Of a DNA stretch of 64,000 nucleotides, positions 57-50,500 are shown piece by piece; positions within the stretch are counted from its first letter, which is position 1; the number at the start of each line of letters is the position of its first letter. Both the position numbers and the translations under genes were made by a program. The notes beneath the pieces are model-generated. The model made no database searches. It saw only the letters and a list, made by a program, of their open reading frames with translations, and had not been told where the DNA came from. The stretch covers positions 8,205,955 through 8,269,954 of the forward strand of contig OY811980.1 in NCBI GenBank assembly GCA_963681505.1, written 5' to 3'. The DNA is from Eunapius fragilis. Taxonomy: Eukaryota > Porifera > Demospongiae > Spongillida > Spongillidae.

Positions 57-474
57 CTATTGTCTGGCCATGTGTGCCCTATAGATGATGGTTATGAATA
101 CTAACATGAGCAGCATCACTGCAAGGTCGTCCAAAAACCCCACCAGACCAAACACAGACTCTGGTATCAGGTCCAGAGGAGACAGGACGTAGAGGCATGC
201 GAGGGCCAGGAGGAAGATGAGATGTAACCTGTGGACCATCCGCAGCCCTCCAATGGTGAACAGGTTTTGAAAAAGATGACGTAACAGGACAGGCAGGTCG
301 TACAGGTAGTGCATCAGCTGTAACCATGGTGATGCATGTGTAAACATCACACATGCACCCACATGTGCGTGCACTTGCCGGTCTTCTTTCTCCAGACATC
401 CTCATGTTGTAGTCCCTAAGCTCTCCTTGGTGTGGGCTGGTACGGGCTGAGGCACTCATTAGAACCAGTGTGAC
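57..474 (-). pseudogene. Partial duplicate of RNF170 (exons 3-4 only)
   Basis: Two exons, 474-379 and 317-57, encode the C-terminal half of an RNF170-like protein, including the DUF1232 membrane region (motif SPLDLIPESVFG) and the natural stop. They are separated by a 61-bp intron with a GC donor (GCAAGT) and an AG acceptor, as in the full gene at 23598-25972. No RING exon or start exon follows on the minus strand up to about 6.7 kb. This is therefore a 5'-truncated copy without a recognisable promoter or start. It differs from the intact gene by very few bases, so the duplication is recent or an assembly duplicate. Confidence 0.75.
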
Positions 475-639
475 CTGTATGAGGCCATTCATGTGATCTG
501 CAACACCGTGCATGCGATCAGCACCATACACATGTGATCTGGAACACTATACATGTCACCTATGTATGAGAAATATATTACTTTCAAGTTTGTATGATGA
601 CTTCTACACAATGATGACCCTGATGAAATTAAGGCCTCA

Positions 640-960
640 TATTGATGTACGCCAGAGCCATGATGAAATTATGGCCTCATATTCAAGATTAATGTACCAT
701 GAGGCTTCATATTCAAGATTAATGTACCATGGGGCCTCATATTCAAAATTAATGTACCATGAGGCCTCATATTCAAGATTAATGTACCATGAGGCCTCAT
801 ATTCAAGATTAATGTACCATGAGGCCTCATATTCAAGATTAATGTACCATGAGGCCTCATATTCAAGATTAATGTACCATGAGGCCTCATATTCAAGATT
901 AATGTACCATGAGGCCTCATATTCAAGATTAATGTACCATGAGGCTGGTCAAGATTAGCA
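640..960. repeat. 30-bp minisatellite, about 10 copies
   Basis: A 30-bp unit containing GAGGCCTCATATTCAAGATT repeats head to tail about ten times with few variants. The unit length is a multiple of three, so it is open in several frames, but the predicted peptides are pure repeat and are not taken as genes. The second copy of this region (about 24216-24275) has only about two units. Confidence 0.9.
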
Positions 961-5945: not shown

Positions 5946-6724
5946 GCAGCAACTCGCAATTTTAATTGTCTCTAAACCTGACTATTGGCCAGGACTATCC
6001 TGGCTGGAGCTCTGATTATGTTAATATTAATTTGATTGTCCTAGCCTGATATGTCTAACTGAATTACTTAGTGTGTAAACAAATTCTTTGGTTCATAAGA
6101 GTATAACATTGACACTAGTACTTAGTGTGGCTCCTTCAAAGCTAGGCCAATATCATTCAACTTATTTTTAAAAACAACTTGATGTGGTAATATTTAATGA
6201 TGTGGATTCCACCAACACCTGGAGATCTGCCTGTCTTCTCTCTCAAAGGCCAAACATCAGCCCTCTGTTCGTGATAAAGTGTTCCTGTAAACACCTTAGA
6301 GATCCCTCATTAATTATGATTGCAGCAGTATTACCTGAAAACCCCATAATTCAAAATACAAGGGACCTTTGTACGGATATGTGCAACGTGCTAATATGCA
6401 TTCAAAAAACTATCCATATAGCAATGGATAGAATATCCATGGAAGTCAAAGTGTTCTTATTTTGTATTTGTCTGAGCAGGTTTATGATTATAACATATAC
6501 ATGTGGTCAAATGGTATTCTATATGAATCCACACAACAGATGGAATGGTGACGTGTCAGGTAGTTGCATACATCTTTGAATACACTTGTGTCAATATTAG
6601 ATGAGAAACAGGGACATGATTGTGAGAAAGGTCCTGAATTGTAAACTTGTCTCTCTCCTAACTGTGAGAGTTGAGAGGTCATTTGTTTGAAGTAAACAGT
6701 TATTGTACGTCTCTGCCCTTTTAG
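5946..6724. other. Intergenic or intronic DNA upstream of the beta-helix exon
   Basis: An open frame at 6184-6579 has no recognisable domain. Given the exon that starts at 6725 with a good acceptor, this could be intron or 5' exon sequence of the same gene. I see no support for a particular model. Confidence 0.35.
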
Positions 6725-7694
6725 GTCCTTTATAGGGGGAGGGGCTTTGGACGTGTACAATTGTGTCACCACGGAGATTGTCAATTGTTCAATTGTTGAC
6801 AACCATGCCACTTCCGTTACGCAAGACTCCCAGTATAGAGGCAATGCAGGAGGTGTGGCCATCAATTTTCATGGAGTGTTGCTCACGAATCAAACCAAGC
6901 CGAGTGTGCTAGTGGCGGGAAGCACGTTCAAGGGCAACACGGCTCACCCTGAGAACCAGGTGACTTCAAGTACCTTGGTCCAGAGAAGGGTGTTTGTCGG
7001 AAGGGGAGGGGGTCTGGCAGTGTACATGGGGGAGGATGACCCTGTCATTATCACAGTCATGGGTTGCACTTTTATCAACAACTCAGCCATTGCACGAGGA
7101 GGCGGGGTTTACATCTTCCTTGATGGCAAACTGTCTGGTCACACATTCCTTATGGCTGATTCACTCCTGGAAGGTAACATTGCGTCAGAGACCAGTACAC
7201 GTGGGAGTGTTAAAAGTGAAGGGGATGGAGGAGGAATTGCCATAACCGTCACATTCACACCATTGGACAAAAGGTTCCCTAACAGCGTGGTCATCACCAA
7301 CTGCACCTTCAGACACAACCAAGGTGGGGAATGGGGTAGTGTTGTCATGACGATATTAGTAGTATAGCTCAGTTCTGCATGTCCTACCAGTGTAGCCTCT
7401 GAACCCTGGTCTTCATTGTGGAGTGATGTAGTGTTGTGCAATTATTTGGTGTGGTCAGGGATGGGCACAGTAGGATCATGTTGGCGCTACAATTGAACCA
7501 TTGCTTGCAGCACAGCATGGAGGTGGAGCCTACGCCGCTCCAGGCCTGACCCCGGGTGATGGATACTTTGTCTCGTTTGAGAACTCACTGTTTGATGGCA
7601 ACTATGCGTCAGAGTATGCGGCGGCCATTGGATTTGCGACTCTGGTCTTTTTCCAGTCGTTCTCCTACCTCCATCCTTACAGGATCACCAGCTG
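6725..7694 (+). CDS. Partial parallel beta-helix (POMP-like) surface protein, two exons
   Basis: Exon 6725-7323 follows CCCTTTTAG and ends at CAAG|GTGGGG. Exon 7511-7694 follows TTGCTTGCAG and ends at CTG|GTAAAG. The phases agree across the join. The product is built of right-handed beta-helix rungs of the form C-T/S-F/I-x-x-N-x-A...GGG-V/L-Y: NCSIVDNHA, GSTFKGNTA, GCTFINNSAIARGGGVYI, NCTFRHN, FENSLFDGNYASE. Such repeats are typical of polymorphic-membrane-protein-like extracellular proteins, common in sponges, and many sites are N-glycosylation sequons. No signal peptide, start codon or stop exon could be located, so this is an internal part of a larger gene or a relic. The function is unknown; extracellular adhesion is a guess. 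Confidence 0.6.
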
Positions 7695-10408: not shown

Positions 10409-10550
10409 TATCCCACCCTCGTCGCCACTGTGGAATCCACGAGCCGGATGCCAATAGGTATATATAATAGACGGTCCATGTAATTAAGTGCTAATTTCAG
10501 TGTAAACGGATAATAATCAACTACAATATACGGGTACACGAATATGCATT

Positions 10551-13500
10551 CTACAATTCCGTTTGTACTCCACAGAAGGAGGCCACAGGGATGAGCTGAA
10601 TGTGGTCTTTGGGTGGAGGTAATGTGGTATCACTTTGGAGAGGGAGGGCAGAGGGAAGGATGGGGAGAGAAGAGGAGGAGAGAGAATTGTTGTATGTAGG
10701 AGAGGAAGGGACAGGAGGAGGTGGAGGAGATGGAGGTGAGTGAAGTGGAAGGGAGGAGGGAGCTGTTGTATTTCCCACATCAATGACCACCTCTTTGACA
10801 TCACAAATGGATTCATAGACTCCATCATTATCTTCTACATGAATCCTTTCATAGTAGACATTTTCTGTCACGTTGATAGACTTAAGCTCAGTGTCATGAG
10901 TCATATCAGTGTAGTCGTGAGTCATATCAGTGTAGTCATCATCAAGTGATACCTTTTCTATTACTAGTTTTCCCTTTTGCTTTGATCTGTTGATTAATTT
11001 CATTATAACCACCAAAAATAATGTAGTATAAAGTAGTCTAACCTTAATATGAGAATAATAACTATTATGGAGACCACAAGAAGGACACTGAAGATGCCTC
11101 CAATTAATGCCCCAGCAAGTGGACCAATGATGGGCAGGGTGCTACCAGAAGCATCAGACTGAACTGTAGGTGTGCTTGATGGAACAGAACTGATGGGTCC
11201 TGTGGTGGAGTGTGTCACATCCTAACAGGCTACATACATTATACACACCAGTGTACATGTATGGTCCACTATACAGGGATATGCACCTAGCAGATAATGG
11301 AGATGAGGTCACCAATGCACTGGGCCCCAGACCTTTACTGGTCAGACCTCTGACCGTGATAAAGTAGGTTGCCATAGCATCCAGTGAGGTTCCCATAACG
11401 TATGTGACATTGGTCATTATTTCCAGCTGTTTATCTCCAACTACTGGTCCATACGCAATGATGTAATCCACAAACCATACATACATACATAACATTATAT
11501 AAGCACCAGTGCACATGAATGGTCCACTACACTACAGCTATGTGGCTGATGTATGGTCCACTACACTACAGCTATGTGGCTGATGTATGGTCCACTACAC
11601 TACAGCTATGTGGCTGATGTATGGTCCACTACACTACAGCTATGTGGCTGATGTATGGTCCACTAATCTACAGCTATGTGGCTGATGTATGGTCCACTAC
11701 ACTACAGCTATGGGGCTGATGTATGGTCCACTACACTACAGCTATGGGGCTGATCTATGGTCCACTACACTACAGCTATGTGGCTGATGTATGGTCCACT
11801 ACACTACAGCTATGTGGCTGATGTATGGTCCACTACACTACAGCTATGTGGCTGATGTATGGTCCACTACACTACAGCTATGTGGCTGATGTATGGTCCA
11901 CTACACTACAGCTATGTGGCTGATGTATGGTCCACTACACTACAGCTATGTGGCTGATGTATGGTCCACTACACTACAGCTATGGGGCTGACGTATGGTC
12001 CACTACACTACAGCTATGTGGCTGATGTATGGTCCACTACACTACAGCTATGTGGCTGATGTATGGTCCACTACACTACAGCTATGGGGCTGACGTATGG
12101 TCCACTACACTACAGCTATGTGGCTGATGTATGGTCCACTACACTACAGCTATGGGGCTGATGTATGGTCCACTACACTACAGCTATGTGGCTGATGTAT
12201 GGTCCACTACACTACAGCTATGTGGCTGATGTATGGTCCACTACACTACAGCTATGGGGCTGACGTATGGTCCACTACACTACAGCTATGGGGCTGATGT
12301 ATGGTCCACTACACTACAGCTATATGGCTGATGTATGGTCCACTACACTACAGCTATGGGGCTGATGTATGGTCCACTACACTACAGCTATGGGGCTGAT
12401 GTATGGCCCACTACACTACAGCTATATGGCTGATGTATGGTCCACTACACTACAGCTATGGGGCTGATGTATGGTCCACTACACTACAGCTATGGGGCTG
12501 ATGTATGGCCCACTACACTACAGCTATGGGGCTGATGTATGGTCCACTACACTACAGCTATGGGGCTGATGTATGGCCCACTACACTACAGCTATGGGGC
12601 TGATGTATGGTCCACTACACTACAGCTATGGGGCTGATGTATGGTCCACTACACTACAGCTATGGGGCTGACGTATGGTCCACTACACTACAGCTATGTG
12701 GCTGATGTATGGTCCACTACACTACAGCTATGTGGCTGATGTATGGTCCACTACACTACAGCTATGTGGCTGATGTATGGTCCACTACACTACAGCTATG
12801 GGGCTGATGTATGGTCCACTACACTACAGCTATGTGGCTGATGTATGGTCCACTACACTACAGCTATGTGGCTGATGTATGGTCCACTACACTACAGCTA
12901 TGTGGCTGATGTATGGTCCACTACACTACAGCTATGTGGCTGATGTATGGTCCACTACACTACAGCTATGTGGCTGATGTATGGTCCACTACACTACAGC
13001 TATGTGGCTGATGTATGGTCCACTACACTACAGCTATAGGGCTGATGTATGGTCCACTACACTACAGCTATGGGGCTGATGTATGGTCCACTACACTACA
13101 GCTATGTGGCTGATGTATGGTCCACTACACTACAGCTATGGGGCTGATGTATGGTCCACTACACTACAGCTATGGGGCTGATGTATGGTCCACTACACTA
13201 CAGCTATGTGGCTGATGTATGGTCCACTACACTACAGCTATGTGGCTGATGTATGGTCCACTACACTACAGCTATGTGGCTGATGTATGGTCCACTACAC
13301 TACAGCTATGGGGCTGATGTATGGTCCACTACACTACAGCTATGTGGCTGATGTATGGTCCACTACACTACAGCTATGTGGCTGATGTATGGCCCACTAC
13401 ACTACAGCTATGTGGCTGATGTATGGTCCACTACACTACAGCTATGTGGCTGATGTATGGTCCACTACACTACAGCTATGGGGCTGATGTATGGTCCACT

Positions 13501-16500
13501 ACACTACAGCTATGTGGCTGATGTATGGACCACTACACTACAGCTATGTGGCTGATGTATGGTCCACTACACTACAGCTATGTGGCTGATGTATGGTCCA
13601 CTACACTACAGCTATGTGGCTGATGTATGGTCCACTACACTACAGCTATGGGGCTGATGTATGGTCCACTACACTACAGCTATGGGGCTGATGTATGGTC
13701 CACTACACTACAGCTATGGGGCTGATGTATGGTCCACTACACTACAGCTATGGGGCTGATGTATGGTCCACTACACTACAGCTATGTGGCTGATGTATGG
13801 TCCACTACACTACAGCTATGGGGCTGATGTATGGTCCACTACACTACAGCTATGTGGCTGATGTATGGTCCACTACACTACAGCTATGGGGCTGATGTAT
13901 GGTCCACTACACTACAGCTATGTGGCTGATGTATGGTCCACTACACTACAGCTATGTGGCTGATGTATGGTCCACTACACTACAGCTATGGGGCTGATGT
14001 ATGGTCCACTACACTACAGCTATGTGGCTGATGTATGGTCCACTACACTACAGCTATTTGGCTGATGTATGGTCCACTACACTTCAGCTATGGGGCTGAT
14101 GTATGGTCCACTACACTACAGCTATGGGGCTGACGTATGGTCCACTACACTACAGCTATGTGGCTGATGTATGGTCCACTACACTACAGCTATGGGGCTG
14201 ATGTATGGTCCACTACACTACAGCTATGTGGCTGATGTATGGTCCACTACACTACAGCTATGTGGCTGATGTATGGTCCACTACACTACAGCTATGGGGC
14301 TGACGTATGGTCCACTACACTACAGCTATGGGGCTGATGTATGGTCCACTACACTACAGCTATGGGGCTGATGTATGGTCCACTACACTACAGCTATGTG
14401 GCTGATTTATGGTCCACTACACTACAGCTATGTGGCTGATGTATGGTCCACTACACTACAGCTATGGGGCTGATGTATGGTTCACTACACTACAGCTATG
14501 GGGCTGATGTATGGTCCACTACACTACAGCTATGGGGCTGATGTATGGTCCACTACACTACAGCTATGGGGCTGATGTATGGTCCACTACACTACAGCTA
14601 TGTGGCTGACGTATGGTCCACTACACTACAGCTATGGGGCTGATGTATGGTCCACTACACTACAGCTATGTAGCTGACGTATGGTCCACTACACTACAGC
14701 TATGTGGCTGATGTATGGTCCACTACACTACAGCTATGTGGCTGATGTATGGTCCACTACACTACAGCTATGTGGCTGATGTATGGTCCACTACACTACA
14801 GCTATGGGGCTGATGTATGGTCCACTACACTACAGCTATGTGGCTGATGTATGGTCCATTACACTACAGCTATGTGGCTGATGTATGGTCCACTACACTA
14901 CAGCTATGGGGCTGATGTATGGTCCACTACACTACAGCTATGTAGCTGACGTATCATCCACTACACTACAGCTATGGGGCTGGTGTATGGTCCACTACTC
15001 TACAGCTATGGGGCTGATGTATGGTCCACTACACTACAGCTATGTGGCTGATGTATGGTCCACTACACTACAGCTATGTAGCTGACGTATGGTCCACTAC
15101 ACTACAGCTATGTGGCTGATGTATGGTCCACTACACTACAGCTACGGGGCTGATGTATGGTCCACTACACTACAGCTATGTAGCTGACGTATCGTCCACT
15201 ACACTACAGCTATGTGGCTGATGTATGGTCCACTACACTACAGCTATGTGGCTGATGTATGGTCCACTACACTACAGCTATGTGGCTGATGTATGGTCCA
15301 CTACACTACAGCTATGGGGCTGATGTATGGTCCACTACACTACAGCTATGTGGCTGATGTATGGTCCACTACTCTACAGCTATGTGGCTGACGTATGGTC
15401 CACTACTCTACAGCTATGGCTACTCATGGACCATGATGGTGAGAGTATGAGGGAGTATGGACTACTCAGGTGTACCTGGAACAACTACTGTCCAAGTTAT
15501 CTGAGATGCAAGGTAAGTGCCCACAGCTATGACAGAGATGTTGTACTGAACCCCAACTTGAAGGTTGGTTAGGACATAAGAGGTAGAAGTGGTTGAACCA
15601 CCACTTGTACTTGGGACTCCATTAGCCACATAGTAGATATCATATCTGCTCACTGGACCACCTGAGGTTGGTGCAGTCCAAGAGACACTGATAGTTGTGG
15701 GACCAGACTGCACAGCAGTGACACCAGTGGGTGGAGCAGGAGAACCTGTATAGAGGTACATGTCTATAGGTACAAGACACCCTTCATAGGCAGTACTTAC
15801 CTAATACACTGAGGGATGAGGTAGTGGATCTTGGATTGAGAGTAAACCCTGTAGCTCCACACACTGGTGAGCAGGTAGTGGTGACATTGCATGTGTACAT
15901 TCCAGATGCTCTCCCAGTCACAGTCAGGGTGTTGTTATAAGTAGATGTTGGTCGATCTGTCACTATCTGAGAGGAAGCATAGTTATCACCATTCACTGAA
16001 CTTCCATTGATGGTCCACTGCACAGTTGTAGGAGGAGAACTAGTGCTGGTGCAGGTCAACTGGAACACTGGTGGATCAACATTTGTAGGTGTCAACAGCT
16101 GAAATTGGACACCTCCTGTGATGTTAGGACCATCTGTGGGAGAGTCAACACTTCCATAACACATGTGATGTACTTTCCTCTCTACTTACAAGTGGCTGCT
16201 ACAAAGAGAGCGTAGCTAGTAGGGGCTGATGTAGCTATGCCTGATGATGCTGCTAGTGTGAGATCAGTGTACAGTCCAACACAGAGTGTGATGGTGGTAT
16301 TGATACAACATTGAACACCATGTGGGAAGTCATAAGGAGTTCCACGATACAGCTCTACTCCTTGTGACACATTTCGTTGACCCAACCCTCCAGGGGTGGT
16401 TACAGGGTCTGGTGTTGCTAGTGGAAACAGGGCTCCATTTGGTTGATACCACTGTCCACCTGTTATACCCTCACACACCAGAGGATACTGGAATGCTGTA

Positions 16501-18048
16501 CTATTTAGTGTGCTCACTCTTGGTGTAACTGCTGAGAGGGACACCAGGCTGTTGTTGGCAATCATTACAAACAGTGCATTCTGATTCCAGGTGATCCTAG
16601 GTTGACCTGTTTGGGTACAAATGACCATGTCTGATATAATATTAAATGCACCACCGTGTTACACTTCTTTGCATGCAGGAAAACGTGTTTCGACCTGTAA
16701 GGCAAGATGTCAACTGTCGAAAAAGGAAAAGAAATTACATTGTAAGTGCAGGTGTATATTGAATGGAATATCTTCTAGAAATGCATGTGGTTTCTGCGCT
16801 GTACATAAACATGATTGCAGCCACTCTGTACAATATATGTATAATCATTTGTAACACTATACGACTGTTAAATCATTTTTGGCTTACTTGATATAGTTGT
16901 AGCCAAAGCAACCTGAGATGGCATACAAGTGCCCACAGCTATGACAGAGATGTTGTACTGAACCCCAACTTGAAGGTTGGTTAGGACATAAGAGGTAGAA
17001 GTGGTTGAACCACCACTTGTACTTGGGACTCCATTAGCCACATAGTAGATATCATATCTGCTCACTGGACCACCTGAGGTTGGTGCAGTCCAAGAGACAT
17101 TGACAGATGTGGGACCAGACTGCACAGCAGTGACACCAGTGGGTGGGGCAGGAGGACCTGTATAGAGGTACGTGTCTATAGGTACAAGACACTCTTCATA
17201 GGCAGTACTTACCTGATACATTGAGGGATGAGGTAGTGGATCTTTGGCTTAGAATAGGCCCTGAATTACACACTTGTGGTGAACCAGTGCAGTTGATTAG
17301 GGGAGAGGTTATACTAGTAGTGGTGACAGTGCATGTGTACATCCCAGGTGCTTTCCCAGTCACAGTCAGGGTGTTGTTATAAGTAGATGTTGGTCGATCT
17401 GTCACTATCTGAGAGGAAGCATAGTTATCACCATTCACTGGACTTCCATTGATGGTCCACTGCACAGTTGTAGGAGGAGAACTAGTGCTGGTGCAGGTCA
17501 ACTGGAACACTGGTGGATCAACATTTGTAGGTGTCAACAGCTGAAACTGGACACCTCCTGTGATGTTAGGACCATCTGTGGGTGAGTCAACACTTCCATA
17601 ACACATGTGATGTACTTTCCTCTCTACTTACAAGTGGCTGCTACAGAGAGAGTATAGCCCATAGTGCCTGATGTAGCTATGCCTGATGATGCTGCTAGTG
17701 TGAGATCAGTGTACATTCCAACACAGAGTGTGATGGTGGTATTGGTACAACATTGAATACCATGTGGAAAGACAGAAGGAGTTCCACGATACAGCTCTAC
17801 TCCTCGTGACACATTTCGCTGACCCAACCCTCCAGGGGTGGTTACAGGGTCTGGTGTTGCTAGTGGAAACAGGGCTCCATTTGGTTGATACCACTGTCCA
17901 CCTGTTATACCCTCACACACCAGAGGTTTCTGGGATGCTGTACTATTCAGTGTGCTCACTCTTGGTGTAACTGCTGAGAGGGACACCAGGCTGTTGTTGG
18001 CAATCATTACAAACAGTGCATTCTGATTCCAGGTGATCCTAGGTTGAC
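10551..18048 (-). CDS. Ig/FN3 receptor with ITAM-like cytoplasmic tail (receptor D)
   Basis: Exons in transcript order: 18048-17632 (V-like domain, C...WYQPNG...C), 17575-17213 (Ig), 17157-16888 (FN3, PPAPPTGVTAVQSGPTSVNVSW); then the same three again at 16606-16190, 16133-15801 and 15745-15476. After a 3.9-kb satellite come about 11515-11287 (second half of another FN3), 11199-11043 (membrane helix IIGPLAGALIGGIFSVLLVVSIIVIILIL) and 10986-10551 (tail with stop). Extracellular exons are phase 1. The tail contains DYTDMTHDYTDM (two YxxM motifs), YERI-x8-YESI (ITAM spacing) and proline-rich runs (SPPPPPVPSSP). Such a protein would sit in the plasma membrane and could signal through SH2 proteins; this is inferred. 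A signal-peptide exon was not found, the join around 11287-11199 does not keep frame in my model, and the first half of the third FN3 is missing. Confidence 0.7.
11517..15420. repeat. 34-bp satellite array, ~115 copies
   Basis: The unit contains GGTCCACTACACTACAGCTA followed by TGTGGCTGATGTAT and repeats without spacers for about 3.9 kb. Units differ mainly at TGTGG/TGGGG and GATG/GACG. The variants occur in local runs, which suggests block-wise expansion. A stray half-unit lies at about 11262-11275. The array lies between the second FN3 exon and the half FN3 exon of receptor D. Confidence 0.95.
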
Positions 18049-22401: not shown

Positions 22402-22680
22402 ACAGGTCAGAGGCATATGGTACACCACTTTCAGTACCACGGATGGCCTGAACAGGGAGTACCAGTCTCTGGGCATGGCTTCATCCACTTCATCCAGGAG
22501 GTCAGGAACTTCTATGGCTCCCTCAACGTTACCTCCCCCGTGGTGGTACATTGCAGGTGAGCCACGCCCCTTAGCATGACCACACCCACTGTACATGCCA
22601 ATGACGTGCGCACACACACACACATACACACACACACACACACATACACACACACACGCACGCACATGCGCACACACACA

Positions 22681-22734
<54 letters not shown>

Positions 22735-23330
22735 GAGCTGGACGCACAGGAGTCTTTATAGCCATGCATATTATTCTGGAGAGGATGTTAGTGGAGGGAC
22801 GTGTGGATGTCTTCCAAACAGTCAAGTCACTCAGGATACAGCGTCCCGCAATGGTTCAGACGGTGGACCAGTACGCCTTCTGTTATGACATAGCTATCAA
22901 CTTTGTTGAGTCTTCCGGCTTGCTTAAACAGCCACCACCCACAGAACCACGTGCCCGTGGCAACTCAAGTGCCAGTGAGTTAAGGAAGAAGAACCCCTCC
23001 AGGAGCAGCATCCTTGTCCCCCGGGGGGAGACCTACACGAGACGCAGCTCTGTCCGATTGGCTCCCAGTACCAGCCAATTGCATAATGTGGAGGACCCAC
23101 CCCCCATCACCCCCACACTTGATGTCACCAGTCCCCTCTTGGACACCACACCTTCTCACGCCTCCAGGCTTAGTGCTGTTCCAGAAGTTGTGGTTATCGG
23201 TGAAGATGGATCAAGGCAGAGTTCTGTACCAGATATGGGTGTTAGCGGTGCGGACACATCCATGCTTCTCTCACCCCCTAACACCCTCACCTTGACACTA
23301 GACCTTAGCTCTAATTCAAGCGAGGCATAG
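22402..23330 (+). CDS. Receptor-type protein tyrosine phosphatase, C-terminal D2-like domain (5' part not found)
   Basis: Exon 22402-22556 follows CTTTCAG and ends CATTGCAG|GTGAGC. Exon 22730-23330 begins T|AATGGAGCTGG and runs to a stop. Joined, they give [12 protein letters not shown]...[15 protein letters not shown]...[30 protein letters not shown]. That is the WPD-loop, P-loop (C-x5-R) and Q-loop part of a classical PTP. The loop reads WPE rather than WPD, as in membrane-distal D2 domains of RPTP-alpha or LAR type, which have little activity. A 135-residue serine-rich tail follows. The serine codon of HCS is split by the intron, which holds a CA microsatellite. No transmembrane or D1 exon is visible upstream. 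The gene may be truncated, or its 5' exons may be unrecognised. Confidence 0.75.
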
Positions 23331-23597: not shown

Positions 23598-25972
<2,375 letters not shown>

Positions 25973-28648: not shown

Positions 28649-31358
28649 ATGATCATGCGTTTCTGGTACATGTACATGCGTCGTTTGAGTTTGTGGTTCT
28701 TATATGTTATTGTTGTGCAACAAATCGGTGAGTGAATGGCGGTGGCGCTCAGCGTTCATTTGTAACGCCAATAGCAAACGTCTGGAGCCTTCAGTGCCCC
28801 TCGGGCAGTCGGCCTTTCCCGCCAACTTCGTGCGTCAAGTTTGGAGAGCAACCGGATAGTTACGATGGGGCACAAGCACGGTGCGCATTAGATGGAGGTG
28901 CGCTGCTAACGGTTGTCGATTCGGTACAGTTGACGGCGGCATTGCGCTACGTGGAAACACTGGGGCAAAGAGGGTCGACTTACTGGATCAACGTCACTAT
29001 AAACAGCACCGGTTTAGCACCAGGGGGGCACCAGTGTACCGCCATTCGTAATGTGACGCTGTTTAAGATGGAGAACTGTACCCAACCTCAGTCCAGATTA
29101 TGTCAGACCAGCTACACAGGTGACTTTTGGAAGGTCATTGAGTTTAATCTTTACATTGATCATTTTCTCACCTTTAGCCACGCCCACCGTGTCCATAAGT
29201 GCCACGCCCACTTCCCTTTCAGTGGGCTCACCTGCTAACCTGACATGTTCCTACAGTAACAGTACCTCTGTCAGCATACAGAGGGATGATGTGGTCCTCA
29301 GTACCACCTCTGTTCCCCTTAGTACCTCCACCTCACAGTTCAGCCTATCACTACCCAGTATCCAGGCTGGTCGCTATGACTGCGTAGCTGCTAATCCTCT
29401 GGGGGCAGTCAAGTCCACAGCCATAGTAGTAGCTACTTCACAGGGTATGGGGGGGAGGGAATAGCTCTGGTTTTAGTTTAACCCCTTCTCTCCTTCAGGT
29501 ACCACCATAAATCCCATCTCTCTCACGTTCAATGGGACGACTGCAAACAGCCCTGTGTACTTACCTCTTGGTTCCATCTTCAACATCAACTGCTCCACCT
29601 CCACCTCGTCTGTCTCCTGGACCTGGTTCAGAAATGGTGTCCCTCTGTCCTCCATGTCCAGCTTGCTAAGTGTGAATGACTTCACCACCTATGACACCTC
29701 TGGGTACTACCAATGTAGAGCCATGGTCCCCTCCTCCTCCAATAATGGCATAGCACAGCTCCTGGTCCTGGCTACAGGTGGGCTACTATTAGAATCTTTT
29801 ACCTTGTAAAAGGAGTGCAATCAACTCAATGTCTTATGAGCCATTTAGTAACGGTCTGGGCACCACCTTCCTCCTCCTCCCCAGCAGGTAGCGTCCCATC
29901 ACCTCTGGAGTATATCTTTGTGGGGGCGTGGTCCCAGTCTGAGCTATTCGTTATCTGGTACCCACCTCTGAACCCCAACACAGACCCCGCCCTCTTACGT
30001 TATCAAGTCCTCTATGGGGTGTGGTCAACGGACCTCACTTACCCAGCCGATGGATCACTCCTGGGTAGCCAAGCTGCAAACTGCACCATCCCAGGACTGC
30101 TCGCGGGGACAGCCTACTCCTTGTCTGTCCTCGTCTGTTCTGAGGTTGGCTGTGACACTTCCAATTTATTGGTCACCATGGCCTCAACCTTTGGACTAGG
30201 TCAGTTGTAATGTCTCTGTACATGTGTAAGAACACACCCACAACCTCTGAAACTTCACACGTTTTCTTTGCTCCACCTCATCCCTCAACCCTCCATCTTT
30301 CTCTCCCACATACTCCTTCACCCCCTCCCTCACACCGCACTCTCCTCCCTCGTACCACACCCTCCTCTCTCTCACCACACCCTCCTCCCTCACACCACAC
30401 CCTCCTCCCTCACACCACACCCTTCTCCCTCGCACCACACCCTCCTCTCTCTCACCACACCCTCTTCCCTCACACCACACCCTCCTCCCTCACACCACAC
30501 CCTCCATGCAGTTCCAAACTCCACTGTGCAAGATGTGGTGCTGTACTACGATGAGCTGGGTATGGACATAGTTGTGGCCTGGGCACCCCTCATCACCCAA
30601 CCCCCTGAGGGCACTGTTTACTTCTATGAGGTGCAATACGGAGGCATGTATGATCCTATCAATGAAGCCGTAGTACACCCACCATTTAAGAGCTTGCGGC
30701 TTGATGGTACCTCTGATGTCTACCAGGTCAGCATCCCCCCCCCCTCCCCCCACACACACACACCCGGGGGGCATCTCGTCTTGCACCGCCCACACTTTGC
30801 TCCTCCTCATCCTGTCCCGTCACATGCAGGCGAGGGTCAGGGCAGCCGTAGTGGTGCGGGAATACCCCAAGACCTATAACTACAGTGGGTGGAGCCAGTG
30901 GGCGAGGAAACAGACGACACCAGTCAGCACTACGACACCAGTCAGCACTCCGACATCTGGTAGGGCTGCTTGGTAGCTTTGGGCGTGCCTTAACTGGTGC
31001 TTTTTAACCCCTTACTTTTAACCCCTTAGTGCCTACAGGTGAGTAGTTCACTTTGTGCACCAGTGATCACTTGGCTCCGCCCCTTTTCTACTAACCAGTC
31101 AAGTCACCTTCAACTGAAGCAAATGAAATCACCCCAGGGGCAGATGTAATTGCCCCAGCAGTGGTGGTGCCAGTGGTGGTGGTGGTGGTGATGGTAGTGA
31201 TCGGGATTGCTCTTTTCCTTTGGTGTTATTGTAAAGGGAAGAACAGGTGGGTGTGGCCTAAGACACTGCCTACTATTTTTAGCATCAGGACGACGACAAC
31301 AGATGTCACTGACAGCTCAATTGCCGTAAATGTACCAGATGATAACCAGCTCTTGTGA
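28649..31358 (+). CDS. C-type lectin/Ig/FN3 membrane receptor (receptor A)
   Basis: Exons: 28649-28727 (signal peptide MIMRFWYMYMRRLSLWFLYVIVV), 28775-29119 (C-type lectin-like), 29178-29444 (Ig), 29499-29777 (Ig), 29888-30199 (FN3), 30512-30726 plus 30830-30959 (FN3), microexon 31030-31038, 31099-31246 (membrane helix), 31283-31358 (tail). The sum is 1860 bp and in frame: 619 residues. The lectin fold shows LQCPSGSRPF...C and C...F...NC...C, but no EPN/QPD calcium-sugar motif that I can see. The Ig domains carry LTCSYSNSTSVSI...GRYDCVA and CSTSTSSVSWTWFRNG...SGYYQCRA. The second FN3 ends in GWSQWA. The tail is short and ends DDNQLL, an acidic di-leucine sorting motif. Most extracellular modules are phase 1-1 exons. 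The ligand is unknown. The first intron (47 bp) and its AATAG acceptor are the least certain part. Confidence 0.82.
30270..30505. repeat. Pyrimidine-rich tandem repeat CACCACACCCTCCTCCCT
   Basis: About ten degenerate copies of an 18-bp unit inside the intron between the two FN3 domains of receptor A. Confidence 0.85.
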
Positions 31359-47506: not shown

Positions 47507-50500
47507 TGACTAACCTTGCTACCACAGTTGATGATTAAGCTTTCCAGGCAAAGGTTATGACAGGCCAGACCACACTGCAATCAGAATGGTGTGCAATAAC
47601 AGAGTGTTATGCACTTGGTAATCCATCAATTTAACAATTCCTCAAACCCCAACACCCCCCCCTCCCCCCCACCAGCATTCCTCACAGCAGTCTAGAAATT
47701 GAATAGATGTAAGCCTAACCACAGAGGTAAGCCTAACCACAGGTGTAAGCCTAACCACAGAGGTAAGCCTAACCACAGATGTAAGCCTAACCACAGGTGT
47801 AAGCCTAACCACAGGTGTAAGCCTAACCACAGAGGTAAGCCTAACCACAGGTGTAAGCCTAACCACAGGTGTAAGCCTAACCACAGAGGTAAGCCTAACC
47901 ACAGAGGTAAGCCTAACCACAGAGGTAAGCCTAACCACAGATGTAAGCCTAACCACAGATGTAAGCCTAACCACAGGTGTAAGCCTAACCACAGAGGTAA
48001 GCCTAACCACAGATGTAAGCCTAACCACAGGTGTAAGCCTAACCACAGAGGTAAGCCTAACCACAGAGGTAAGCCTAACCACAGGTGTAAGCCTAACCAC
48101 AGGTGTAAGCCTAACCACAGAGGTAAGCCTAACCACAGAGGTAAGCCTAACCACAGATGTAAGCTTAACCACAGATGTAAGCCTAACCACAGAGGTAAGC
48201 CTAACCACAGGTGTAAGCCTAACCACAGATGTAAGCCTAACCACAGGTGTAAGCCTAACCACAGGTGTAAGCCTAACCACAGAGGTAAGCCTAACCACAG
48301 AGGTAAGCCTAACCACAGATGTAAGCCTAACCACAGGTGTAAGCCTAACCACAGGTGTAAGCCTAACCACAGGTGTAAGCCTAACCACAGGTGTAAGCCT
48401 AACCACAGAGGTAAGCCTAACCACAGGTGTAAGCCTAACCACAGGTGTAAGCCTAACCACAGATGTAAGCCTAACCACAGAGGTAAGCCTAACCACAGGT
48501 GTAAGCCTAACCACAGGTGTAAGCCTAACCACAGGTGTAAGCCTAACCACAGGTGTAAGCCTAACCACAGAGGTAAGCCTAACCACAGGTGTAAGCCTAA
48601 CCACAGGTGTAAGCCTAACCACAGAGGTAAGCCTAATCACAGATGTAAGCCTAACCACAGATGTAAGCCTAACCACAGATGTAAGCCTAACCACAGATGT
48701 AAGCCTAACCACAGAGGTAAGCCTAACCACAGGTGTAAGCCTAACCACAGGTGTAAGCCTAACCACAGGTGTAAGCCTAACCACAGAGGTAAGCCTAACC
48801 ACAGATGTAAGCCTAACCACAGATGTAAGCCTAACCACAGATGTAAGCCTAACCACAGAGGTAAGCCTAACCACAGATGTAAGCCTAACCACAGGTGTAA
48901 GCCTAACCACAGGTGTAAGCCTAACCACAGAGGTAAGCCTAACCACAGATGTAAGCCTAACCACAGGTGTAAGCCTAACCACAGAGGTAAGCCTAACCAC
49001 AGATGTAAGCCTAACCACAGAGGTAAGCCTAACCACAGATGTAAGCCTAACCACAGATGTAAGCCTAACCACAGATGTAAGCCTAACCACAGAGGTAAGC
49101 CTAACCACAGATGTAAGCCTAACCACAGGTGTAAGCCTAACCACAGAGGTAAGCCTAACCACAGGTGTAAGCCTAACCACAGAGGTAAGCCTAACCACAG
49201 ATGTAAGCCTAACCACAGAGGTAAGCCTAACCACAGATGTAAGCCTAACCACAGGTGTAAGCCTAACCACAGATGTAAGCCTAACCACAGAGGTAAGCCT
49301 AACCACAGAGGTAAGCCTAACCACAGATGTAAGCCTAACCACAGATGTAAGCCTAACCACAGATGTAAGCCTAACCACAGGTGTAAGCCTAACCACAGAG
49401 GTAAGCCTAACCACAGATGTAAGCCTAACCACAGGTGTAAGCCTAACCACAGGTGTAAGCCTAACCACAGAGGTAAGCCTAACCACAGGTGTAAGCCTAA
49501 CCACAGGTGTAAGCCTAACCACAGATGTAAGCCTAACCACAGGTGTAAGCCTAACCACAGGTGTAAGCTTAACCACAGAGGTAAGCCTAACCACAGAGGT
49601 AAGCCTAACCACAGATGTAAGCTTAACCACAGATGTAAGCCTAACCACAGAGGTAAGCCTAACCACAGGTGTAAGCCTAACCACAGATGTAAGCCTAACC
49701 ACAGGTGTAAGCCTAACCACAGGTGTAAGCCTAACCACAGAGGTAAGCCTAACCACAGAGGTAAGCCTAACCACAGATGTAAGCCTAACCACAGAGGTAA
49801 GCCTAACCACAGATGTAAGCTTAACCACAGATGTAAGCCTAACCACAGGTGTAAGCCTAACCACAGATGTAAGCCTAACCACAGGTGTAAGCCTAACCAC
49901 AGGTGTAAGCCTAACCACAGGTGTAAGCCTAACCACAGAGGTAAGCCTAACCACATGTGTAAGCCTAACCACAGATGTAAGCCTAACCACAGAGGTAAGC
50001 CTAACTACAGGTGTAAGCCTAACCACAGAGGTAAGCCTAACCACAGATGTAAGCCTAACCACAGGTGTAAGCCTAACCACAGGTGTAAGCCTAACCACAG
50101 AGGTAAGCCTAACCACAGGTGTAAGCCTAACCACAGGTGTAAGCCTAACCACAGGTGTAAGCCTAACCACAGAGGTAAGCCTAACCACAGGTGTAAGCCT
50201 AACCACAGGTGTAAGCCTAACCACAGAGGTAAGCCTAACCACAGGTGTAAGCCTAACCACAGATGTAAGCCTAACCACAGATCAGATGCAACACATGATC
50301 CAACTTTATAATAACATTAGCTATACATAACTGTACCCAAACATAACTGTACTCAAACAGTAGCGATACATAACAGTACCTAATGATAACTTTTATGCAT
50401 GCAAACTTTAGTAGCAGTTGTTACAGAGCATCCCAAGTTCCTACCACACCCACCCTCCCACATCACACCCTCCATGTATCACATCCACCCTCCCATATCA

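What the first reader, a model, noticed from the sequence alone, without database searches (positions are those of the whole stretch)
10806..10860. ITAM-like motif in the tail of an invertebrate Ig/FN3 receptor
The cytoplasmic exon encodes YERI, eight residues, YESI, which fits the ITAM consensus YxxI/L-x(6-8)-YxxI/L. It also encodes two YTDM (YxxM) motifs and a proline-rich end. This arrangement is that of a Syk/PI3K-coupled activating receptor, unexpected in an early-branching animal.
Basis: partly seen in the sequence, partly recalled or inferred. Interest (0 to 1): 0.8.

Follow-up and report, generated by a model that had tools for sequence, protein, structure and literature searches.

The report
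Sponge phosphatase-receptor copy lacking its phosphatase
The immune-style double-tyrosine motif is really in the sequence, but it sits in the tail of a sponge receptor belonging to a large family of cell-surface tyrosine phosphatases, in a copy that seems to have lost its phosphatase half, so it is not good evidence for a Syk-coupled activating immune receptor.

Summary
The motif is real: YERI-x8-YESI is encoded at 10853-10806 (minus), in a tail exon (10986-10551) that follows a transmembrane exon.

The reading as an activating receptor is not supported. Three paralogues on the same chromosome carry the same tail, and there the exon runs on into two tyrosine-phosphatase domains (D1 with WPD and HCSAGVGRTG; D2 with WPE). 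The exon is therefore the juxtamembrane region of an Ig/FN3 receptor tyrosine phosphatase (RPTP); at least 51 clusters of PTP matches lie within 3 Mb. In the window copy homology stops at 10575, at the edge of a dispersed repeat, and no PTP exon follows on that strand in the window.

The motif is kept in the four recent copies, but not in the other RPTP tails read, and a chromosome 4 relative has YSRE for the first YxxI. About 1% of shuffled tails contain the pattern. Its first half also fits the ITIM consensus. The YTDM pair is a 21-bp duplication found only here.

The genome encodes a Syk-type tandem SH2, so Syk coupling is possible but untested. Most likely: a PTP-less RPTP derivative, relic or decoy.

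The parts
17632..18048 (-). exon A1 (unnamed module, first unit)
   Evidence: open, cag acceptor, gtaagt donor; no best-scoring Pfam stretch lies in it; 78% identical to g10 and g12
17213..17575 (-). exon Ig1
   Evidence: splice model; Pfam Ig_2 best stretch
16888..17157 (-). exon FN3_1
   Evidence: splice model; Pfam fn3 best stretch
16190..16606 (-). exon A2 (second unit)
   Evidence: splice model
15801..16133 (-). exon Ig2
   Evidence: splice model; Pfam Ig_3 best stretch
15476..15745 (-). exon FN3_2
   Evidence: splice model; second fn3 stretch
11515..15418 (.). 34-bp satellite array, 114.8 copies, in the intron before the TM exon; the same array lies just before the TM exon of paralogue g10
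   Evidence: TRF; blastn
11291..11476 (-). remnant of the membrane-proximal FN3 exon: 5' half missing at the array edge, donor GT changed to CT
   Evidence: blastn to g11 and g12; donor compared with g11 and g12
11043..11199 (-). transmembrane exon
   Evidence: GPLAGALIGGIFSVLLVVSIIVIILILR
10551..10986 (-). juxtamembrane/tail exon, ending in a new stop shortly after the junction
10893..10939 (-). 21-bp tandem duplication coding DYTDMTH twice (YxxM pair)
   Evidence: TRF, 2.2 copies; not in the paralogues
10806..10853 (-). ITAM-shaped motif YERI-x8-YESI; its first half also fits the ITIM form VxYxxI
10420..10574 (-). dispersed repeat that begins where homology to the phosphatase paralogues stops (10575)
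   Evidence: 8 further matches on C1, C8, C14 and C23, some of them pieces of one copy; four of the 8 start at base 1 of the query, i.e. at 10574; end of homology

Best explanation
The exon is the juxtamembrane segment of a sponge receptor protein tyrosine phosphatase (Ig/FN3 ectodomain - TM - juxtamembrane - PTP D1 - PTP D2) from a tandemly expanded family on chromosome 10 of Eunapius fragilis. In the full-length paralogues the tyrosines of this segment most likely serve as phosphorylation and SH2-docking or regulatory sites next to an active phosphatase (inferred). In the window copy a rearrangement at a dispersed repeat removed what followed the tail. It is now either a relic or, if transcribed, a PTP-less membrane protein that could act as a decoy or SH2 dock. 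Shown: family identity, the motif, no PTP exon on that strand in the window, open exons. Inferred: how the PTP part was lost, any phosphorylation, signalling or expression.
For: Paralogues g10, g11 and g12 carry the same TM and tail, and the same exon continues HDHVHNMHTNGDRGFEGEYRQ, followed by PTP exons with Pfam Y_phosphatase matches over the cut-off. D1 signatures WPD, HCSAGVGRTG and KNRF are in 3 of 3; D2 has WPE and SDGVGRTG in 3 of 3. Window homology ends at 10575 at the edge of a dispersed repeat. tblastn of nine PTP and tail-end pieces gives nothing better than E 0.2 on the minus strand of the window. 110 listed PTP matches at C10 5.53-8.45 Mb fall into 51 clusters (rows copied, whose list was cut). 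The motif is in 4 of 4 close copies. One search found the tail end at 23 places: three are these paralogues; of the other 20, 14 were read and show no such motif in the tail, and a regex over all 20 gave hits only on the other strand or before the TM exon.
Against: All eight modelled exons are open with GT-AG sites, and the tail indels between window, g10 and g12 keep the frame, so 'relic' is not proven. The window tail stays open where g11 has a frameshift. 7,500 bases just beyond the window read N, so PTP exons further away are not excluded. Full intactness of the three paralogue genes was not modelled, only their signature motifs.
Confidence: 0.8

Rival explanations
1. A true ITAM receptor: Src-type kinases phosphorylate both tyrosines, the tandem SH2 of sponge Syk binds, and the receptor activates; YTDM adds PI3K.
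For: Formal consensus match; both Y and both I codons are the same in four copies; Syk-type tandem SH2 in the same genome, E 3.7e-44 to Syk over both SH2 domains and the linker; ITAM, hemITAM and ITIM motifs are reported for allorecognition receptors of Hydractinia and Botryllus (PMC12065747, passages).
Against: The closest relatives are phosphatases. The first YxxI is YSRE in the chromosome 4 relative. YxxM is window-only. About 1% chance per tail. The copies are so recent (dS 0.08-0.15) that unchanged motif codons say little. No kinase match is listed beside the tandem SH2 (capped list: 134 of 1,095 candidates scored).
Confidence: 0.07
2. An ITIM-like or single-SH2 docking site: VxYxxI recruits an SH2 phosphatase or other SH2 protein and works with the receptor's own PTP domains as an inhibitory unit in the full-length siblings.
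For: VCYERI / VYYERI fits [ILVS]xYxx[ILV] (consensus recalled; sequence); the siblings have D1 signature motifs.
Against: The second site (GVYESI) does not fit ITIM; the first +3 residue differs in the chromosome 4 relative; no binding data.
Confidence: 0.3
3. The PTP exons are only displaced by inserted repeats and lie downstream beyond the window, so the gene is still a phosphatase receptor.
For: Dispersed repeat at the junction; 7.5 kb next to the window read N.
Against: The junction cuts inside the coding exon; the rest of that exon (HDHVHNM...) has no match in the window better than E 3.9; the frame meets a stop at 10551. The readable stretch beyond the N holds PTP exons on the other strand.
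Confidence: 0.07
4. A plain non-functional relic (pseudogene); this is one branch of the best explanation, so the odds overlap with it.
For: PTP part lost; membrane-proximal FN3 exon truncated with a changed donor; omega of the pooled second ectodomain unit 0.82-1.06 (single exons range from 0.35 to above 2) and of TM+tail 0.54-0.93; no first exon found.
Against: Open exons and splice sites, in-frame indels; omega is also high between the PTP-bearing copies g10 and g12 (0.76 tail, 0.70 ectodomain), as in fast-evolving recognition genes; g10 also has the array and no FN3 remnant seen before its TM exon, yet keeps PTP signature motifs.
Confidence: 0.45

Closest known systems
Ig/FN3 receptor protein tyrosine phosphatases with tandem PTP domains (LAR-like in layout; name recalled)
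   Same: Ig and FN3 ectodomain, single TM, and in the paralogues D1 (WPD, HCSAGVGRTG) and D2 (WPE)
   Different: ITAM-shaped tyrosine pair in the juxtamembrane segment; window copy has no PTP domain in the window; ectodomain contains an unnamed module (exon A). No tree was made, so no RPTP subtype is assigned
Classical ITAM receptors (CD3, FcR gamma, DAP12; recalled)
   Same: Yxx[IL]-x8-Yxx[IL] in a cytoplasmic tail; Syk-type tandem SH2 in the genome
   Different: Belongs to a phosphatase receptor family; motif not kept in the deeper relative; no coupling shown
Hydractinia alr and Botryllus fuhc receptors with ITAM/ITIM/hemITAM motifs (PMC12065747, passages)
   Same: Invertebrate membrane receptors with tyrosine motifs, encoded in a gene cluster
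   Different: The passages seen mention no phosphatase origin for them; no allorecognition evidence exists here

Membership tests
ITAM receptor | Yxx[IL]-x(6-8)-Yxx[IL] in a cytoplasmic tail | tested here: met
   10853-10806, spacing 8
ITAM receptor | motif conserved in homologues beyond recent copies | tested here: not met
   within this genome only: one chromosome 4 relative has CYSRE...YDSI; other RPTP tails read lack it (14 of 20 places; regex). Other species not searchable here
ITAM receptor | Syk-family tandem SH2 available in the organism | tested here: met
   C10:3460200-3463500, best PDB match Syk, E 3.7e-44; kinase part not read and not listed
ITAM receptor | phosphorylation and Syk recruitment | not testable with these tools
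   needs biochemistry
Receptor protein tyrosine phosphatase | homology of TM and juxtamembrane to RPTP genes | tested here: met
Receptor protein tyrosine phosphatase | Ig/FN3 ectodomain | tested here: met
Receptor protein tyrosine phosphatase | PTP domain in this copy | tested here: not met
   none on the minus strand of the window; homology ends at 10575. So it is RPTP-derived, not shown to be a working RPTP
ITIM receptor | [ILVS]xYxx[ILV] | tested here: met
   first site VYYERI / VCYERI; second site GVYESI does not fit
ITIM receptor | SHP-type phosphatase recruitment | not testable with these tools
   needs biochemistry

The most novel reading that the evidence does not exclude
By losing its phosphatase half, an RPTP of a sponge has become a tail-only receptor whose juxtamembrane tyrosine pair (plus a duplicated YxxM) recruits sponge Syk and PI3K: a paired activating counterpart to its phosphatase-bearing siblings, within a large, fast-evolving RPTP cluster that may serve self/non-self recognition.
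Probability: 0.06. Interest if true: 0.8.

Novelty: new variant of a known kind. Interest (0 to 1): 0.36.

Why it matters
If the ITAM reading held, ITAM-Syk signalling from a self-contained receptor would reach back to sponges and would have arisen from a phosphatase receptor. Even in the ordinary reading the locus points to a large tandem cluster of Ig/FN3 phosphatase receptors in a freshwater sponge, with high nonsynonymous divergence between the copies compared. That is a concrete candidate set for studying sponge cell recognition.

Tried and rejected
Plain activating receptor: rejected as the leading reading once the paralogues ran into PTP exons. Plain pseudogene because the last FN3 exon is broken: not accepted outright, since g10 also has the 34-bp array before its TM exon and no FN3 remnant seen there, yet has PTP signature motifs, and since FN3_2 joins the TM exon in frame. 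Conservation as proof of selection on the motif: rejected, the copies are too recent. dN/dS as a test of relic versus functional: inconclusive; g11 was left out of it because its tail is frameshifted, and only the second ectodomain unit was pooled. Signal-peptide scan upstream: three hits in the window, two in simple repeats and one unconvincing; none in the short stretches of g12 and g10 scanned alongside. Kinase gene at C4 2.1 Mb: judged by eye to be Fes/Fer-like, not Syk. Chromosome 4 relative: no PTP-like frame seen by eye in about 2.5 kb downstream of its tail stop; further not read, and no C4 row is among the listed PTP matches (list cut). Paper searches listed nothing, by title and start of abstract, that describes such a motif in a sponge RPTP: 20 of 478 listed; 12 of 801; 12 of 12; 8 of 8; 3 of 3; 10 of 547. 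The lists were capped, so this is no proof of absence from print. No structure prediction and no tree were made.

Full report
What the sequence shows. On the minus strand of the window a TM exon (11199-11043) is followed by a 56-nt gt..ag intron and a tail exon from 10986. The tail reads RSKQKGKLVIEKVSLDDDYTDMTHDYTDMTHDTELKSINVTENVYYERIHVEDNDGVYESICDVKEVV... and ends at a stop at 10551. Upstream, two units of three exons (A, Ig, FN3) join the TM exon in frame, giving one open frame over eight exons; Pfam confirms fn3 and Ig. The first exon was not found.

The organism. The genome has 24 contigs and 218,937,333 bases. Its total and the lengths of C2, C4 and C10 match the 218.91 Mb plus mitochondrion, and the 17.64, 14.35 and 8.87 Mb chromosomes, of Eunapius fragilis odEunFrag1.1 (PMC12616128, passages). 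The window would be on chromosome 10. This is an inference from lengths.

What the exon is. A search of the own genome with the tail gave six matches at E <= 10: the window itself, three loci on the same chromosome (g10 at 6.32 Mb, g11 at 7.56 Mb in two pieces, g12 at 7.58 Mb) and one on chromosome 4 (E 0.18). In g10, g11 and g12 the tail exon runs on into GFEGEYRQ, and exons of a tyrosine phosphatase follow, with Pfam Y_phosphatase matches over the cut-off. D1 has WPD, HCSAGVGRTG and KNRF in 3 of 3; D2 has WPE and SDGVGRTG in 3 of 3. Whether these three genes are intact throughout was not modelled, and g11 is frameshifted in the tail. So the exon is the juxtamembrane segment of an RPTP family. 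110 listed PTP matches on C10 between 5.53 and 8.45 Mb fall into 51 clusters (same strand, gaps under 6 kb, copied, whose list was cut). Some clusters may be fragments.

What happened to the window copy. DNA homology to all three paralogues ends at 10575. The next 155 bases are a dispersed repeat: 8 other matches on four chromosomes, some of them pieces of one copy, four of them starting at the first base of the query. Nine peptide pieces of the g12 phosphatase and tail end find nothing better than E 0.2 on the minus strand of the window. They do find PTP exons at 22.4-22.9 kb on the plus strand, and others on the plus strand beyond the window. 7,500 bases next to the window read N. The membrane-proximal FN3 exon of g11 and g12 is present only as a remnant (11476-11291), cut by a 34-bp satellite array (11515-15418) and with its donor changed from GT to CT. 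The g10 gene also has this array just before its TM exon, shows no FN3 remnant there, and has the PTP motifs, so this part of the structure is compatible with a working gene.

Is the motif meaningful? For: it is in 4 of 4 close copies, with the same Y and I codons; within the motif only two linker residues vary, plus one silent change. The genome encodes a tandem SH2 that matches Syk across both domains and the linker (E 3.7e-44), and Syk in sponges is already in print (PMC9486129 and PMC9601881, passages). Against: the copies are recent (dS 0.08-0.15). Omega in TM+tail is 0.54-0.93 and in the pooled second ectodomain unit 0.70-1.06, so little purifying selection is visible. The chromosome 4 relative keeps the Y-Y distance but has YSRE in place of YERI. 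Other RPTP tails lack the motif: 14 of 20 further places were read, and the regex hits in the 20 lie on the other strand or before the TM exon. Shuffled tails show it in 0.7-1.2%, and the pattern occurs at five other places in this window besides the tandem repeats. The first site also fits the ITIM form. The YTDM pair is a 21-bp duplication not shared by the paralogues. No kinase match is listed beside the Syk-type SH2 pair, in a capped list.

How it most likely works. In the siblings the tyrosines sit beside a phosphatase with active-site signatures, so a regulatory or SH2-docking role is the simplest inference. The window copy is most likely a derivative without catalytic part: a relic (about 0.45) or a decoy or docking receptor (about 0.35). 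A true Syk-coupled activating receptor is possible but unproven (0.07).

Comparison. ITAM, hemITAM and ITIM motifs in allorecognition receptors of a cnidarian and an ascidian are reported (PMC12065747, passages). The present case differs by lying in a phosphatase receptor family.

Noticed in passing
window 22405-22913 (+): PTP exons of another gene on the opposite strand ([26 protein letters not shown]).
   Followed up: partly
window 28732-31355 (+): Another receptor-like gene: weak C-type lectin match (below cut-off), two Ig domains, FN3-like exons and a TM with a short tail by eye.
   Followed up: partly
G000:C10 5.53-8.45 Mb: At least 51 clusters of PTP matches, in a stretch that also holds many FN3 matches: a large tandem RPTP family in the sponge.
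   Followed up: partly
L014 / L075 (C4:10679400-10683647): Distant relative of the TM and tail with no PTP-like frame seen by eye in about 2.5 kb downstream; possibly a second PTP-less derivative.
   Followed up: partly
window 6696-7364 (+): ORF with weak Beta_helix and Chlam_PMP Pfam matches, both below the curated cut-off.
   Followed up: no
window 47645-50327: Long simple-repeat array open in several frames.
   Followed up: no
window 60-955 and 23601-24447: The same 114-residue ORF (GCLEKEDRQVHAHVGACV...) is printed at 60-401 and 23601-23942, with a similar 30-bp repeat beside each: a duplication within the window.
   Followed up: no
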